Source of the DNA: an uncultured Synergistales bacterium
GTDB lineage: Bacteria > Synergistota > Synergistia > Synergistales > Aminobacteriaceae
DNA length: 34,798 nucleotides
Assembly (NCBI GenBank): GCA_905233525.1
Contig: CAJOEW010000007.1
Coordinates: forward strand, 1 to 34,798
Direction: 5' to 3'
Shown one piece after another: positions 3,132 to 20,704 of this stretch. The position numbers were made by a program, and so were the translations under genes. Position 1 is the stretch's first letter. Every line of letters begins with the position of its first letter. A model generated the notes under the pieces. The model searched no databases. It saw only the letters and a program-made list of their open reading frames with translations, and was not told the origin of the DNA.

Positions 3132-3185
3132 GCGGATTTTTTTTAATTATATATGCTTAATTTCGAAAGGAGTTTTTTTATAAAC

Positions 3186-5306
3186 ATGCCGCAAGAATTT
3201 AAAAATGTTCATGAAATTTTCGGATCGTTAGTGTTCAATAAAAGAGCGATGAAGGAAAAATTAAATCCTGATATTTACGAACAATTGATCGAAGCTATGG
3301 AAGGCCGTCAGCGTTTAAGCCCTGCAGCAGCCGATATAATTGCTAACGCCATGAAAGATTGGGCAATTTCAAAAGGTGCTACACATTGGGCGCATTGGTT
3401 CCAGCCTCAAACAGAATCTACAGCAGAAAAACATCAGGCTTTCACAATGTCAGACGGCGAAGGAAATCCGATAGAAATTTTCAGAGGCAAGAATTTATCA
3501 CAGGGAGAGCCTGACGCTTCAAGTTTTCCATCAGCCGGAAGCCGTTCAACGTTTGAAGCCCGCGGTTATTCAGCATGGGACATAAGCAGCCCTGCATTTA
3601 TAATCAAGAGCAATAAGGGCGGTACGCTTTGTATTCCGTCAGTGTTTTTATCATTTGACGGCACATCGCTTGATTTAAAAACGCCGTTATTAAGAGCTTT
3701 GGATGCTATCGAAAGCAGAGCCTTAAAATTATTGCGTACGTTCGGACAGCGCGGAGTCAAATACGTAAAAATGACCGTCGGCGCAGAACAGGAATATTTT
3801 TTACTCGACAGACCAAGAGCGCAATTAAGACCTGATATAAGATTTTGCGGACGTACTTTAATCGGTGCACAGCCTGCTAAAGATCAAAAACAGGATCATC
3901 ATTATTTCGGCGCAATTTCATCACGAGTATTAACTTACATGGAAGACGTAGAGCGCGATTTAGCTAGACTCGGCGTTTCAATTCTTGCACGTCATAATGA
4001 AGTAGCGCGCTGCCAGTTTGAATTTGCTCATTTATTTTCAGACGCTAATACAGCATGCGACCAGAATCAAATTTTAATGGAAGTCATGAGAAAATTAGCG
4101 CGCCAGCATAATTTAAGGCTGTTATTTCATGAGAAACCTTTTAACGGTATGAACGGCTCCGGAAAACATACAAATATTTCTCTCGTTGACAGTGAAGGCA
4201 GAAATTTATTAAAACCTTCAACAACTCACAGGCGCAACGTAATATTTTTAACGTTCTTATCAGCTGCTATATTAGGCGTATCAAAATATCACAGTTTATT
4301 ACAGTTCTCGATCGCCAATCATGGAAATTTATTCAGACTTGGAGGCCATGAAGCACCGCCGTCGATTATAAGCATGTATTTAGGAGCGTCATTAACTGAT
4401 CTTTTACGCAGGCTTGATGATCATGACGCTTCGTTACCAGCCAGCGGAATAATGGACACAGGCTTAACAAAACTGCCTTCGATAATTCAATTTGACAGCG
4501 ACCGCAACAGAACATCACCGATCGCATTTACCGGAGATAAATTTGAGTTCAGAGCGCCGGGATCTTCTCAGTCGATTGCATTACCTGTAACGATGTTTGC
4601 AGCTTTATGGGCATGGGGAATCGATCAGCTTATCGGAATGATTGAAGCCCGCGCTGTTAATGGTGTTGATCCGATTGACGCTGCTATGGACGCTGTAAAA
4701 GAAGCTGTTAAGCTCGGCGGTAATGTCTTATTTGAAGGCGACGCTTATTCAAAAGAATGGCAGGACGAAGCAAAACGCCGCGGATTGATTGAAGCTGAAA
4801 CAATGCCCGAAAAAATTGACCTGTTATTAAAACCTGAAAATAAGGCCATGCTCGAATCGTTAGGCGTGTATAAATCTCATGAGCTTGAAAATTTGCATGA
4901 TATCCGTATGAATGCATTCGCTACAGGTTTAGAAGTTGAGGCGGCCGTTTTATATGACATGTTATGGGAGGGTGTGTTGCCTGCGATCTCAAAACAGTTA
5001 ATACTCGAAAATAATTCTATGCGTGCATTCGATAATTATGATTTCGGCGACACAACACCATGGAAAAATTATATTAACGGTCTTGGAGGCGCTAAGAACT
5101 CTTTAATTACTGACGCGAATAATTTACACGAGCTTAAATCAAAATTATCAAATATGGGCGCTCGCGAACGTGCAGATTTTATAATAAGCGAGATTATCCC
5201 GTTAATGAACACGATAAGGAGTAAATGCGACGCTGCAGAATTAACAATAGCCGCAGATATTTGGCCGTATCCGATTTACAGGAATTTATTATCATTGTCA
5301 GCATAA
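3186..5306 (+). CDS. glnA: Glutamine synthetase type III (GSIII/GlnN)
   Basis: Makes glutamine from glutamate, ammonia and ATP in the cytoplasm. The product is about 706 residues, the size of the GSIII class (around 700) and much longer than GSI (around 450). Diagnostic pieces are VGAEQEYFLLDR (metal and glutamate binding), NGSGKHTNISL (ATP/ammonium-site region), GHEAPPSIISMYLG, and the R-A-P-G-S-S-Q region. ATG 3186 is preferred because AAAGGAG (3166-3172) lies 13 nt upstream. The earlier in-frame ATG at 3153 has no SD and would put the real SD inside the gene. It has its own promoter and stands between clpB and a secreted unknown. GSIII occurs in Bacteroidetes, some Firmicutes, cyanobacteria and Synergistetes, among others. 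Confidence 0.95.
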   Translation: MPQEFKNVHEIFGSLVFNKRAMKEKLNPDIYEQLIEAMEGRQRLSPAAADIIANAMKDWAISKGATHWAHWFQPQTESTAEKHQAFTMSDGEGNPIEIFRGKNLSQGEPDASSFPSAGSRSTFEARGYSAWDISSPAFIIKSNKGGTLCIPSVFLSFDGTSLDLKTPLLRALDAIESRALKLLRTFGQRGVKYVKMTVGAEQEYFLLDRPRAQLRPDIRFCGRTLIGAQPAKDQKQDHHYFGAISSRVLTYMEDVERDLARLGVSILARHNEVARCQFEFAHLFSDANTACDQNQILMEVMRKLARQHNLRLLFHEKPFNGMNGSGKHTNISLVDSEGRNLLKPSTTHRRNVIFLTFLSAAILGVSKYHSLLQFSIANHGNLFRLGGHEAPPSIISMYLGASLTDLLRRLDDHDASLPASGIMDTGLTKLPSIIQFDSDRNRTSPIAFTGDKFEFRAPGSSQSIALPVTMFAALWAWGIDQLIGMIEARAVNGVDPIDAAMDAVKEAVKLGGNVLFEGDAYSKEWQDEAKRRGLIEAETMPEKIDLLLKPENKAMLESLGVYKSHELENLHDIRMNAFATGLEVEAAVLYDMLWEGVLPAISKQLILENNSMRAFDNYDFGDTTPWKNYINGLGGAKNSLITDANNLHELKSKLSNMGARERADFIISEIIPLMNTIRSKCDAAELTIAADIWPYPIYRNLLSLSA

Positions 5307-5320
5307 GATTTTAAAATAAT

Positions 5321-5382
5321 TTGACCTCTTGAGCTTGTGTTATAATCGCTGAAAATTGCAATATAATCACGTTCGGGAGGTC
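5321..5382 (+). promoter_or_regulatory. Promoter enclosed by a Shine-Dalgarno/anti-SD hairpin, upstream of the secreted lysine-rich protein
   Basis: Extended -10 TGTTATAAT at 5338-5346; TTGACC at 5321-5326 is a possible -35 with a short 14-base spacer. Left arm GACCTCTTGAG (5323-5333) pairs with TTCGGGAGGTC (5372-5382): 8 Watson-Crick and 3 G-T pairs. The right arm contains the SD (GGGAGG) of the gene at 5393. The -10 is inside the 38-base loop and the left arm overlaps the -35. No other terminator lies between glnA (stop 5306) and this gene. The T-rich tail after the right arm is poor here (GTTTCTAAAA), so SD masking is more likely than termination at this site. Confidence 0.5.
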
Positions 5383-5392
5383 GTTTCTAAAA

Positions 5393-6190
5393 ATGAAAAA
5401 ATTAGTGCGGATTTTATTAGCTGTCATGATTTTGATATGCTTAACCGCAACAGTGAGCATGGCCGCCAAAAAAAAATATACAAGAATTTTAACGGTGCGT
5501 AATGCTCAAATTGTAAACGGCGGCAATAATAATATAATCGTTGTTCCAAAAGCTGCCAAAAAGAAAAAAAAGAAGTCCAAAAATATGCAGTCTGATGACG
5601 AATTCGCAATAGCAATAGGATCAAAAGCGAAATTTTCATGGTCAGAACAAGTCACCGGAGTAGACAGAATCCCTTCCAAAAAAAACGGACTCGCAAATAT
5701 GACATCGCCTATCAAGATAACGAGCAAGACCGATAAAATTTATTTGAGCTTAGGTGAAGAATTTGCGAATCTTTCAATGATATTTACGAGGATTCTTGAC
5801 GAGAGCGGCGATCAAGTTGCTGAATTCGATTATGCTGATGCTGCCACGGTAAAATTAACGCCTGAACCAAAAGATTATTACATCGAGTATAAAGTCCGTG
5901 CTGACTCGTTACCGAAAAAAGGCAAAAAAGGTTTTAAACTTGGAAATTTTGATATACCGATTGGCGGAGGGCTTTCGATTCCGATAGGTAATCCAGGCGA
6001 AAATGAGAAAGACAGCGATGAACGAACGTATAAATATTTTTATATTCTTCTAAGCATGAAATCAGACGCGAAATTTATAATACACGAGCCTGAAAAATCA
6101 AACGATATGATGAAAATGCTGCCTCTTGAATTACAGCCAACGACATTTGATTATAAAATCCAGTCTCATGATAAACCGCTAATCCAATAA
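5393..6190 (+). CDS. Secreted lysine-rich protein of unknown function
   Basis: 265 residues. It begins with a clear signal peptide: MKK, a hydrophobic run to about residue 20, then S-M-A-A with likely cleavage after AMA near residue 24. The mature part opens with lysine clusters (AKKKY, then PKAAKKKKKKSK at about 53-64). A moderately acidic beta-rich region follows, and a G-rich segment with DIPIGGGLSIPIG near residue 190. No cysteine pair, lipobox or transmembrane helix appears after the signal, so it is probably periplasmic or surface exposed. I do not recognise a family. It is monocistronic: own extended -10 promoter upstream and its own terminator downstream. SD GGGAGG lies 12 nt before ATG 5393. 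Confidence 0.8.
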   Translation: MKKLVRILLAVMILICLTATVSMAAKKKYTRILTVRNAQIVNGGNNNIIVVPKAAKKKKKKSKNMQSDDEFAIAIGSKAKFSWSEQVTGVDRIPSKKNGLANMTSPIKITSKTDKIYLSLGEEFANLSMIFTRILDESGDQVAEFDYADAATVKLTPEPKDYYIEYKVRADSLPKKGKKGFKLGNFDIPIGGGLSIPIGNPGENEKDSDERTYKYFYILLSMKSDAKFIIHEPEKSNDMMKMLPLELQPTTFDYKIQSHDKPLIQ

Positions 6191-17309: not shown

Positions 17310-18527
17310 ATGCAGGTCTGGGAAAGAGTTTTAGATAGTATACCTGGCTTATTATGCTGCGTTGTTGATCTGGACGGAATTTTATTATACGCAACTCAAG
17401 GATATAAAGCGATCGCAGCAAGATTATTCGGTCATAAATGCGACATTAGCCAGCCTTATCCTCCCGGCCTGACTGATTTTGATGATGATCTTGCAGAAGC
17501 GATTAACACAGCTTTTTCAAGACATACAACAGCGCTTGAAGTTAAAGAGAATAATAAATCATGGATAATTACAATCGCGCCGTTAAAGCTTGAAAATCAA
17601 GAATCGGCCGGCGTTATTATCCGTATAACTCCAGGAACGGAAATAATTTATAAAGAGCCTGAACCTCAACAAGAACCTGAACAGGCTCCGCAAATTCAAG
17701 AGAATACAATTAAGGAAAAGACAATAAGCGAGCCGGATATTTTAAATTTGATTCCTATGCCTGCAATTTTCGCAAGCGATGATGGAATTTGTTTAGGCGT
17801 TAATAAATTTTCTGAAAGCATTCTAAAAGCTGGCGATCCGATTCAAAATATAATCGATAAAAATTACGGCCATGACTTGAAAAATTTAATTATTAAGCGT
17901 TCAGGCGTGATCGAATGCAAAATCCCTGACATAATACCAGGTGAATACAGACTCGTAAAAATCCATGCCGAAAACTCTGAGCTTAACGGAAAAAATACGG
18001 CGCTTTTAATTTTCGAAGACATAACAGAATTACAACGCGCGCGCGATCAGATTCACAGGCTCATGAAAATGGACACGTCAACAGGTTTTTTAAATCGTCA
18101 GGGCTTGGAACATTTCATCTTGCAAAATATAAGACGGGCGCTTGATAAAAAAATCGTTTTCAGCGTTATCGCAATAGAATTAAGCGGACTCAAAAAAATT
18201 AACGCTGATAAAGGCTATTCTTACGGAGATAAAATAATAAACTCTTTCGCTGAAACTTTACGGAAAGTCATAAAACATAATGACTATATAGCAGGACGCT
18301 GGGGAGGTAATGACTTCATGTTAATAGCTGAATGTCCTCAAACGTCCGCAAAAATTATCGCCGCTGACATTTCAGAAGAGTTCATACCGCCTGAAGATGA
18401 TATTAAATTATTTTTCGGTACCGCTGAATTTGAGACAGAACGCGGAATTGGAGTCCGTGATCTCGTTGCTGCTGCATGGGATAATTTAAACGAAATTAAA
18501 AAAAATTTAGCCGATGAAAAATCCTGA
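17310..18527 (+). CDS. PAS-PAS-GGDEF protein with a degenerate cyclase site
   Basis: 405 residues, cytoplasmic, no membrane helix. PAS-like sensor 1 at about 1-110, a Pro/Glu/Gln-rich linker (about 112-150), PAS-like sensor 2 at about 150-240, then a GGDEF fold (about 250-400). The signature loop reads GGNDF at 332-336, so the catalytic third position is Asn. The first metal motif is IELSG instead of the usual (F/I)-D-(L/I)-D, and the inhibitory site before the loop is K-H-N-D rather than R-x-x-D. Cyclase activity is therefore doubtful; it may act as a GTP/c-di-GMP binding or scaffold protein. It lies 5 bp after galE and overlaps rsmA by 14 bp. Confidence 0.82.
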   Translation: MQVWERVLDSIPGLLCCVVDLDGILLYATQGYKAIAARLFGHKCDISQPYPPGLTDFDDDLAEAINTAFSRHTTALEVKENNKSWIITIAPLKLENQESAGVIIRITPGTEIIYKEPEPQQEPEQAPQIQENTIKEKTISEPDILNLIPMPAIFASDDGICLGVNKFSESILKAGDPIQNIIDKNYGHDLKNLIIKRSGVIECKIPDIIPGEYRLVKIHAENSELNGKNTALLIFEDITELQRARDQIHRLMKMDTSTGFLNRQGLEHFILQNIRRALDKKIVFSVIAIELSGLKKINADKGYSYGDKIINSFAETLRKVIKHNDYIAGRWGGNDFMLIAECPQTSAKIIAADISEEFIPPEDDIKLFFGTAEFETERGIGVRDLVAAAWDNLNEIKKNLADEKS

Positions 18528-19308
18528 CGATTTCCGCGCGCTTAAAAGATACGGTCAAAATTTCCTGATCGATAAAAATATTTTAAGGCTGATTATCTCA
18601 AAGGCCGAACTTAAAATTTCAGATACAGTACTTGAGATCGGCGCAGGCCATGGAATTTTAACACGTGCACTGCTTGAAAACGGAGTAAATTTTTTGCACG
18701 CAGTCGAACTTGATACAAGACTTGAGAATGAATTATTAAAAATTCAGGATCGTTATAATAATTTTAAAATTCATTTCGATGACGCTGTAAAATTCGATTA
18801 TGAAAATTTAAAGCCGTTCCCAAATAAAATTATTGCTAATATCCCGTATAACATTACAACTCCGTTAATATGGCACTTGCTCGAATATGCTGAACACGGT
18901 TTTAATTATCAGCTCTATATGTTACAAAAAGAAGCCGCCGAAAGATTGACAGCTAAACCTAAAACAAAAGCCCGTTATCCTTTAGGAATTACGATCGAAA
19001 TTATGGGCAGCGCTAAAATTATTCACGATGTGCCGCCGGAATGTTTCAGACCTGTTCCAAAAGTGCAGTCGGCTATAACTGAGATCAGGCTCGATAAAAA
19101 TCTTACGCTCGTTAAAAATCCCTTATGGAGCAAATTATTACACACAGGCTTTCAACACAGACGCAAAAATATTTTAAACAACTTGCGCGGCTTCATGAAC
19201 ATTGACGAGAATTTATTATTATCAGCTTCAATACAGCCTAACGCACGCGCTGAAGAATTAACGAGTGAACAATGGATAAAGCTTTTTAATTTTATTGCAG
19301 ATAAATAA
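18514..19308 (+). CDS. rsmA: 16S rRNA (adenine1518-N6/adenine1519-N6)-dimethyltransferase RsmA (KsgA)
   Basis: Dimethylates two adjacent adenines in the 3' hairpin of 16S rRNA late in 30S assembly, using S-adenosylmethionine. 264 residues, the normal size. KRYGQNFLIDKNI near the N-terminus, motif I VLEIGAGHGILTRALL (SAM binding), acidic VELDTRLE, and the N-(I/L)-P-Y catalytic motif NIPYNITTPLI (motif IV). PPECFRPVPKVQSAI is the family's conserved P-x-x-F-x-P-x-P-x-V-x-S region. ATG 18514 lies inside the end of the preceding gene (14-bp overlap), implying coupled translation. There is no classical terminator after it; the structure at 19331-19388 may serve. Confidence 0.96.
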   Translation: MKNPDDFRALKRYGQNFLIDKNILRLIISKAELKISDTVLEIGAGHGILTRALLENGVNFLHAVELDTRLENELLKIQDRYNNFKIHFDDAVKFDYENLKPFPNKIIANIPYNITTPLIWHLLEYAEHGFNYQLYMLQKEAAERLTAKPKTKARYPLGITIEIMGSAKIIHDVPPECFRPVPKVQSAITEIRLDKNLTLVKNPLWSKLLHTGFQHRRKNILNNLRGFMNIDENLLLSASIQPNARAEELTSEQWIKLFNFIADK

Positions 19309-19330
19309 ATCAAATATTCTGATACAAAAT

Positions 19331-19388
19331 AATTAACCTTCCTGCGAAAATGTTATACTAGCCCAAAAACGCAGGGAGGTAATTTTTT
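19331..19388 (+). promoter_or_regulatory. Promoter inside a terminator-like hairpin whose 3' arm is the glycerate kinase SD
   Basis: Left arm 19331-19346 (AATTAACCTTCCTGCG) pairs with right arm 19370-19384 (CGCAGGGAGGTAATT): 15 base pairs with one bulged A and one G-T pair, followed by TTTT (19385-19388). The right arm includes the SD GGGAGG (19374-19379). The 23-base loop holds an extended -10, TGTTATACT (19351-19359). TTAACC (19333-19338) in the left arm is a possible -35. Initiation near 19366 gives RNA with no left arm and a free SD. Transcription coming through from rsmA would form the full hairpin. This is the strongest of three such structures in the window. Confidence 0.6.
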
Positions 19389-19392
19389 CAGC

Positions 19393-20652
19393 ATGAGCAA
19401 TTTAAAAGATGACGCTATCGAAATTATTAACAACGCTATAAAATCCGTATTACCTGAAGGCGCAGTTAAAGAAGCTCTCAATCGCGAAGAATTTAAACAA
19501 CGTATCCAAAAGGGAAAAATAATTATCGCTTCAATCGGTAAGGCTGCATGGAGAATGGCGAAAGCTGCTTCTGAAATTTTAGGCAGTAATTTTACAGGTG
19601 CTGTCGTTACAAAATATGATCACTCAATGGGCGATATTAACGGACTTGAAATATTTGAAGCCGGCCATCCTGTGCTTGATAGTAATACGATAAAAGGCAC
19701 GAAGGCATTATTAAAACACGTTGAAAATTTATCAGCAGATGACACCGTTTTATTTTTGGTATCAGGCGGCGGCTCTGCACTGTTTGAATTACCGGCTGAA
19801 GGCGTTAGCTTAACGGATATGATGAGCGTAACAAATCAGCTTTTAGCCTGCGGAGCTGACATCGTAGAAATTAACACAATCAGAAAACATTTATCAGCAG
19901 TAAAAGGCGGACGCTTTGCAAAATTATGTGAACCGGCTCAAGTTTATATGGTCGTATTGTCTGACGTGTTGGGCGATCGTCTTGACAGCATTGCCTCTGG
20001 TCCTGCATGGCCTGATCGTTCAACGAGTGAAGACGCTTTAAATATCGTTAAAAAATATTCGCTTGACGTTAAACCGGATTTAATGAAAGTGTTATCACAA
20101 GAAACTCCTAAGGATCTCGACAATGTAACGGCTGTAATTACTGGAAGCGTTACGGCGTTGTGTGAAGCTTTTAAAAAATTAGCTCAAGATAAAGGCTACA
20201 CACCATTATTATTAACGACAACAATGACATGTGAAGCACGCGAGGCAGGATCATTTTTAGGATCGATCGCTGCTGAAATTAAAAATTCAAATAATCCGAT
20301 CAAAGCTCCATGCGCAATAATAGCAGGCGGTGAAACAGTTGTACACTTAACAGGTAAAGGTTTGGGAGGCCGTAATCAAGAGCTTGCTTTATCAGCGGCG
20401 CATGTTATTTCAGGTTTGGAAGGTGTCTTAATCGCTTCGCTTGGTTCTGACGGTACAGACGGCCCAACAGATGCAGCAGGAGGTATTGTTGACGGTGAAA
20501 CGGAATCAAAATTAAATGAAGCCGGCATAAATATCAGCGATGTGTTGAAAAATAATGACGCTTATAACGCACTCAAAAAGGTTGACGCGCTTTTAATGAC
20601 AGGTCCGACAGGCACAAATGTTAATGACGCAGCGATAATCTTAATAAAATAA
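19393..20652 (+). CDS. Glycerate 2-kinase (GckA/TtuD, MOFRL type)
   Basis: Phosphorylates D-glycerate, most likely to 2-phosphoglycerate, feeding it into lower glycolysis. 419 residues, the usual length for the class-II glycerate kinase family (DUF4147 plus MOFRL). Motifs: IIASIGKAAWRMAKAA near residue 45, GHPVLDSNTIKGTKALL, FLVSGGGSALFELPAEG, then the MOFRL domain with GGETVVHLTGKGLGGRNQEL and ASLGSDGTDGPTDAAGG. Natural substrates in this family include glycerate and, in some, hydroxypyruvate-derived intermediates. It has its own promoter, is monocistronic, and ends in a strong terminator shared with the convergent ACT-domain gene. SD GGGAGG is 13 nt from ATG. Confidence 0.92.
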   Translation: MSNLKDDAIEIINNAIKSVLPEGAVKEALNREEFKQRIQKGKIIIASIGKAAWRMAKAASEILGSNFTGAVVTKYDHSMGDINGLEIFEAGHPVLDSNTIKGTKALLKHVENLSADDTVLFLVSGGGSALFELPAEGVSLTDMMSVTNQLLACGADIVEINTIRKHLSAVKGGRFAKLCEPAQVYMVVLSDVLGDRLDSIASGPAWPDRSTSEDALNIVKKYSLDVKPDLMKVLSQETPKDLDNVTAVITGSVTALCEAFKKLAQDKGYTPLLLTTTMTCEAREAGSFLGSIAAEIKNSNNPIKAPCAIIAGGETVVHLTGKGLGGRNQELALSAAHVISGLEGVLIASLGSDGTDGPTDAAGGIVDGETESKLNEAGINISDVLKNNDAYNALKKVDALLMTGPTGTNVNDAAIILIK

Positions 20653-20660
20653 TTAGTTTC

Positions 20661-20704
20661 AAAAAAATTTCCCTCGCCGGCTTAAAATCTGGTGAGGGTT
20701 TTTT
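20661..20704. terminator. Bidirectional terminator between glycerate kinase and the ACT-domain gene
   Basis: CCCTCGCCGG (20671-20680) pairs with CTGGTGAGGG (20689-20698): 10 pairs, two of them G-T. TTTTTT follows on the plus side; A-rich sequence (20661-20667) gives U's on the minus side, so both converging genes can use it. Confidence 0.93.

What the first reader, a model, noticed from the sequence alone, without database searches (positions are those of the whole stretch)
19331..19388. Terminator-like hairpin built from the next gene's SD, with that gene's promoter in the loop (rsmA / glycerate kinase)
AATTAACCTTCCTGCG upstream of the promoter pairs with CGCAGGGAGGTAATT, which contains the SD, over 15 bp with one bulge and one G-T pair, and T's follow. 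The extended -10 TGTTATACT is in the 23-base loop. RNA read through from rsmA would have both arms, so it could terminate or hide the SD; RNA started at the internal promoter would lack the left arm. One 58-bp stretch could thus act as terminator, promoter and ribosome-binding site, and stop read-through transcripts from producing glycerate kinase. I know of no named element with this layout; that is a statement about my knowledge, not a database result.
Basis: partly seen in the sequence, partly recalled or inferred. Interest (0 to 1): 0.78.

Follow-up and report, generated by a model that had tools for sequence, protein, structure and literature searches.

The report
Hairpin hiding a start signal
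In a rumen bacterium, RNA that runs on from one gene into the next should fold back and hide the next gene's ribosome-binding site, while RNA started at that gene's own promoter cannot; this layout is known from phage T4, but here it seems to recur at several genes of one bacterial genome.

Summary
In detail: 15 base pairs with one bulge and one G-U pair, a 23-nt loop holding TGTTATACT, and the SD of a glycerate 2-kinase gene (gck) in the 3' arm. Predicted RNA from rsmA must spend 13.5-14 kcal/mol to open the SD; RNA from the internal promoter 2.9-5.2. In the loci read, the rsmA-gck junction exists in no other genome of the 43-species genus (rumen Synergistaceae), and none of 30 other gck leaders has the pairing, so conservation does not support it. 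Unexpectedly, in half of this genome strong SD-pairing arms are in excess upstream of co-directional promoter-bearing genes (5 seen, 0.6 expected, permutation p about 0.0005; 3 against 0.5 without the window, p 0.016), including ilvC and, more weakly, lepA. No excess appears at divergent or closely packed genes or in the congeners sampled. Best reading: a lineage-specific read-through insulator that hides the SD and probably also terminates transcription in part.

The parts
18514..19308 (+). rsmA (16S rRNA adenine dimethyltransferase), upstream gene whose read-through RNA would carry both arms
   Evidence: Pfam RrnaAD E 3.6e-53
19331..19346 (+). left (anti-SD) arm AATTAACCTTCCTGCG; lies upstream of the expected start site
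   Evidence: sequence, fold
19351..19359 (+). extended -10 TGTTATACT in the loop; expected start about 19365-19367
   Evidence: sequence; extended -10 present in 20 of 31 distinct gck leaders of the genus; start site not mapped
19370..19384 (+). right arm CGCAGGGAGGTAATT, contains the SD GGGAGG (19374-19379)
   Evidence: sequence, fold
19383..19388 (+). T run after / at the base of the stem
   Evidence: sequence
19393..20652 (+). glycerate 2-kinase (DUF4147 + MOFRL)
   Evidence: Pfam; NCBIfam glycerate 2-kinase models below cut-off; orthologs in 38 other genomes of the genus
5323..5392 (+). second example in the window: left arm TTGACCTCTTGAGCTTGTGT, TGTTATAAT at the arm/loop border, right arm CACGTTCGGGAGGTCGT with the SD, before an orphan gene at 5393
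   Evidence: pairing -21.4; gene found only in this genome of the genus

Best explanation
The stretch is a read-through insulator. RNA polymerase that runs past the rsmA stop makes an RNA with both arms; it folds into a strong hairpin that hides the gck SD, and the hairpin followed by U's probably also makes some polymerase stop. RNA started at the extended -10 inside the loop begins near 19366, lacks the left arm, leaves the SD much easier to open and is translated. gck is thus expressed from its own promoter and kept independent of the rsmA operon. Shown: the sequence, the pairing, its predicted energy, its rarity, and the absence of the arm in relatives. Inferred: the start site, the effect on translation, termination, and any benefit.
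For: z -3.5 fold. Cost of opening the SD 13.5-14 against 2.9-5.2 kcal/mol for read-through and own-promoter RNA. Strong SD-pairing arms are in excess only upstream of co-directional genes with a gap, where read-through RNA exists (5 against 0.6; 4 against 0.6 without gck; 3 against 0.5 without the window), not upstream of divergent genes or in short gaps. Genes with such arms more often have an extended -10 (5 of 7 against 24 of 88, Fisher p 0.026) and, gck apart, none of the six gaps holds a conventional short-loop terminator (overall 45 of 107 do; p 0.04). The same layout is experimentally established in phage T4.
Against: No conservation: the junction was found only in this genome and no congener's gck, ilvC or lepA leader has the arm. 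The start site is only a motif, without a clear -35. The SD to ATG distance (13 nt) is on the long side. Counts are small, and one of the seven top cases (L118 4812) is probably a miscalled start inside coding sequence.
Confidence: 0.55

Rival explanations
1. It is simply the intrinsic terminator of the rsmA operon, which in a compact 84-nt gap happens to lie over the next gene's promoter and SD; hiding of the SD is a side effect.
For: No other terminator-like hairpin in the gap. 3' ends of terminator-like hairpins in this genome are spread over the whole gap and only a minority end in the SD zone. Tail AATTTTTTC.
Against: Loop of 21-23 nt, whereas most terminators found away from the SD have loops of 3-12 nt; T-rich spacers after the SD are background.
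Confidence: 0.25
2. Chance or neutral: an anti-SD stretch that arose without effect in this one genome.
For: Absent from all relatives. Congeners sampled show no excess (2 of 165 at -18 or better), but the difference from this genome is not significant (Fisher p 0.12).
Against: Permutation p about 0.0005 for the genome sample, and the excess is confined to the gene class in which read-through RNA exists.
Confidence: 0.15
3. The arms are two half-sites of a DNA-binding regulator around the gck promoter, acting as DNA and not RNA.
For: Inverted repeat around a promoter.
Against: The arms differ by a bulge and a G-T pair, which RNA tolerates better than a DNA half-site; no such repeat around the gck promoter in any congener; the other members share layout but not sequence.
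Confidence: 0.05

Closest known systems
Phage T4 gene e (lysozyme), soc and I-TevI; T4 segB and phage Aeh1 mobE: hairpin with a late promoter inside
   Same: Long upstream-initiated RNAs fold so that the SD is hidden; RNAs from a promoter immediately upstream lack the 5' arm and are translated (PMC2988022, PMC3014915). For gene e the long RNA gives about 100-fold less protein.
   Different: Here a bacterial chromosomal metabolic gene, an ordinary extended -10 instead of a phage late promoter, a U-run after the stem, no timing switch known, no conservation in relatives, no experiment.
IS10 / IS50 transposase leaders protected from outside transcription (own knowledge; no open paper was found in the library)
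   Same: RNA entering from outside pairs an upstream arm with the transposase SD; RNA from the element's own promoter lacks the arm.
   Different: There the arm belongs to the element's inverted end; here no mobile element is involved.
Intrinsic (Rho-independent) terminator
   Same: G+C-rich stem followed by T's, at the end of an operon.
   Different: Long loop that holds the next promoter; 3' arm is the next gene's SD.

Membership tests
T4 gene e / I-TevI type promoter-in-hairpin SD hiding | SD paired in upstream-initiated RNA | tested here: met
   P(unpaired) 0.0005 and 13.5-14 kcal/mol to open, prediction only
T4 gene e / I-TevI type promoter-in-hairpin SD hiding | own promoter placed so that its RNA lacks the 5' arm | tested here: inconclusive
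   Extended -10 in the loop; motif common in gck leaders of the genus; start site not mapped, no -35
T4 gene e / I-TevI type promoter-in-hairpin SD hiding | reduced translation of the long RNA | not testable with these tools
   needs a reporter
T4 gene e / I-TevI type promoter-in-hairpin SD hiding | arm kept in close relatives (reported for gene e of several T4-like phages; not strictly defining) | tested here: not met
   0 of 30 other distinct gck leaders; junction found only here
Intrinsic terminator | strong G+C-rich stem | tested here: met
Intrinsic terminator | short loop (3-8 nt) | tested here: not met
   23 nt; scanner does not report it
Intrinsic terminator | U-tract right after the stem | tested here: inconclusive
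   4 T after the full stem, AATTTTTTC if the stem is shorter; T-rich spacers are background
Rfam RNA family | match at gathering score | tested here: not met
   no match near threshold

The most novel reading that the evidence does not exclude
This species has recently and repeatedly added anti-SD arms just upstream of promoters (gck, ilvC, lepA, an orphan gene and others). The SD and the T-rich spacer behind it are a ready-made 3' half of a terminator, so one short upstream arm makes read-through RNA terminate or stay silent without touching the gene's own RNA: a genome-wide layer of read-through insulation that evolves by adding one arm.
Probability: 0.25. Interest if true: 0.68.

Novelty: new member of a known kind. 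Interest (0 to 1): 0.42.

Why it matters
If true, a control layout known from phage T4 and IS elements is also used by a bacterium at ordinary metabolic genes, and it shows a cheap way for genes packed end to end to stay independent. It would also mean that annotation by operon and read-through RNA-seq overstates the expression of such genes, since the RNA is there but cannot be translated.

Tried and rejected
Conservation at rsmA-gck: no orthologous junction found in the genus. An apparent rsmA-like C-terminus upstream of gck in one relative (L004) belongs to an asparagine-synthase-like gene. Shared sequence among the examples: none seen, they share layout only. Pattern CCTCC-N20-50-GGAGG across the genus: forward exceeds the reversed control in nearly all genomes, but divergent gene pairs also give this, so I do not rely on it. 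Rfam: nothing. E. coli control (29 gaps): no strong case, too few to conclude. The library search did not return an open paper on IS10/IS50.

Full report
What is there. The window is contig 7 of a 1.64 Mb, 66-contig genome. The closest named relatives are uncultured Synergistaceae, mostly from ruminant gut. rsmA (18514-19308) is followed after 84 nt by a gene for a glycerate 2-kinase of the DUF4147/MOFRL type (19393-20652). In the gap, AATTAACCTTCCTGCG (19331-19346) pairs with CGCAGGGAGGTAATT (19370-19384): 15 pairs, one bulged A, one G-U, 23-nt loop. The loop holds TGTTATACT (19351-19359); the right arm holds the SD GGGAGG (19374-19379); T's follow. The fold is -20 kcal/mol, z -3.5.

What the two RNAs would do. 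RNA that includes the rsmA end keeps the SD paired (P unpaired 0.0005; 13.5-14 kcal/mol to open it), for every upstream start tried from 19100 to 19320. RNA started at 19365-19367 needs only 2.9-5.2 kcal/mol. These are predictions. The start site rests on the extended -10; of 31 distinct gck leaders in the genus, 20 carry TGnTAnnnT at 15-75 nt upstream of the start, so a promoter of this type close to the gene is usual.

Conservation. All 43 genomes of the genus have rsmA, 39 have gck, but in none of the gck or rsmA loci I could read (30 of each, this genome's included) are the two adjacent except in this one, and no gck leader there pairs an upstream stretch with its SD better than -13.7 (here -21.2). 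The element is therefore young or recently assembled by rearrangement.

Is it one of several? In 825 kb of this genome (half of it) I called genes and asked how well the 70 nt upstream of each SD pair with the SD region, compared with arms and SDs of different genes paired at random. In 107 co-directional gaps of 60-200 nt there are 5 at -18 kcal/mol or better against 0.6 expected (p 0.00045) and 4 at -20 against 0.15. Without gck it is 4 against 0.6 (p 0.0026); without the whole window 3 against 0.5 (p 0.016). Divergent genes and short gaps show no excess. The better examples are the gene at window 5393 (-21.4), ilvC (L103 794, -22.7), L099 14660 (-20.2), an M50/RseP-like protease gene (L122 4317, -19.6) and lepA (L102 9239, -16.2) (ilvC, RseP-like and lepA are named from the translated sequence by my own reading, not by a family search). 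They share the layout and not the sequence. Five of the seven at -16 or better have an extended -10 in the region (24 of 88 among genes without pairing; p 0.026), and apart from gck none of their gaps has a conventional short-loop terminator (45 of 107 do overall; p 0.04). These two p values are from small numbers and not corrected for the number of questions asked.

The same question in relatives. In 165 comparable gaps of six congeners there are 2 cases at -18, about what chance gives in each genome; the difference from this genome is suggestive and not significant (p 0.12). For ilvC and lepA I compared leaders across the genus: the ilvC promoter (TGCTAAAAT or close variants) and SD are kept in nearly all, but the anti-SD arm exists only here, even against the nearest genome with 96% identical IlvC. 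For about a third of the lepA loci the start could not be read. So the arms look like additions of this lineage.

Mechanism. The best reading is insulation: read-through RNA from the upstream operon is silent for the downstream gene, because its SD is hidden and because the hairpin with U's may terminate. Half of promoter-bearing genes here have a T-rich stretch right behind the SD, so an SD plus spacer already looks like the second half of a terminator; one upstream arm completes it, and because that arm lies upstream of the start site the gene's own RNA is unaffected. Termination is the weaker half of the claim: the loop is long, and the T's would be there anyway. A plain terminator of rsmA that happens to cover the SD is the main rival.

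Known relatives. Phage T4 gene e, soc and I-TevI, T4 segB and Aeh1 mobE have it: long early RNAs hide the ribosome-binding site, and a late promoter immediately upstream makes RNAs without the 5' arm (PMC2988022; PMC3014915). IS10 and IS50 protect their transposase from outside transcription in a like way (own knowledge). So the kind is known; a bacterial chromosomal example at metabolic genes, apparently multiplied in one lineage, is the new part.

Limits. MAG contigs, simple gene calling, half a genome, no expression data.

Noticed in passing
window 5323-5392: A second hairpin of the same layout (TTGACCTCTTGAGCTTGTG / TTATAAT / CACGTTCGGGAGGTC) before an orphan 265-aa gene that has no Pfam or NCBIfam match and no homolog in the 43 genomes of the genus.
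   Followed up: partly
window 20660-20700: A conventional short-loop terminator (CCCTCGCCGGCTTAAAATCTGGTGAGGGTTTTTT) follows gck, so gck looks like a single-gene transcription unit.
   Followed up: no
G020 (whole genome): CCTCC-N20-50-GGAGG occurs 569 times (reversed control 178) in one congener against about 5-130 in all others; probably an abundant interspersed repeat with inverted arms.
   Followed up: no
L103 1-800: ilvC of this genome has a 14-bp anti-SD arm right before its conserved promoter TGCTAAAAT, absent from the leader of the 96% identical ortholog in G033.
   Followed up: partly
window 3153-5306: Glutamine synthetase type III (GSIII_N, Gln-synt_C, Gln-synt_C-ter), scoring far below the NCBIfam cut-offs for the type I and type III glutamine synthetase models.
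   Followed up: no
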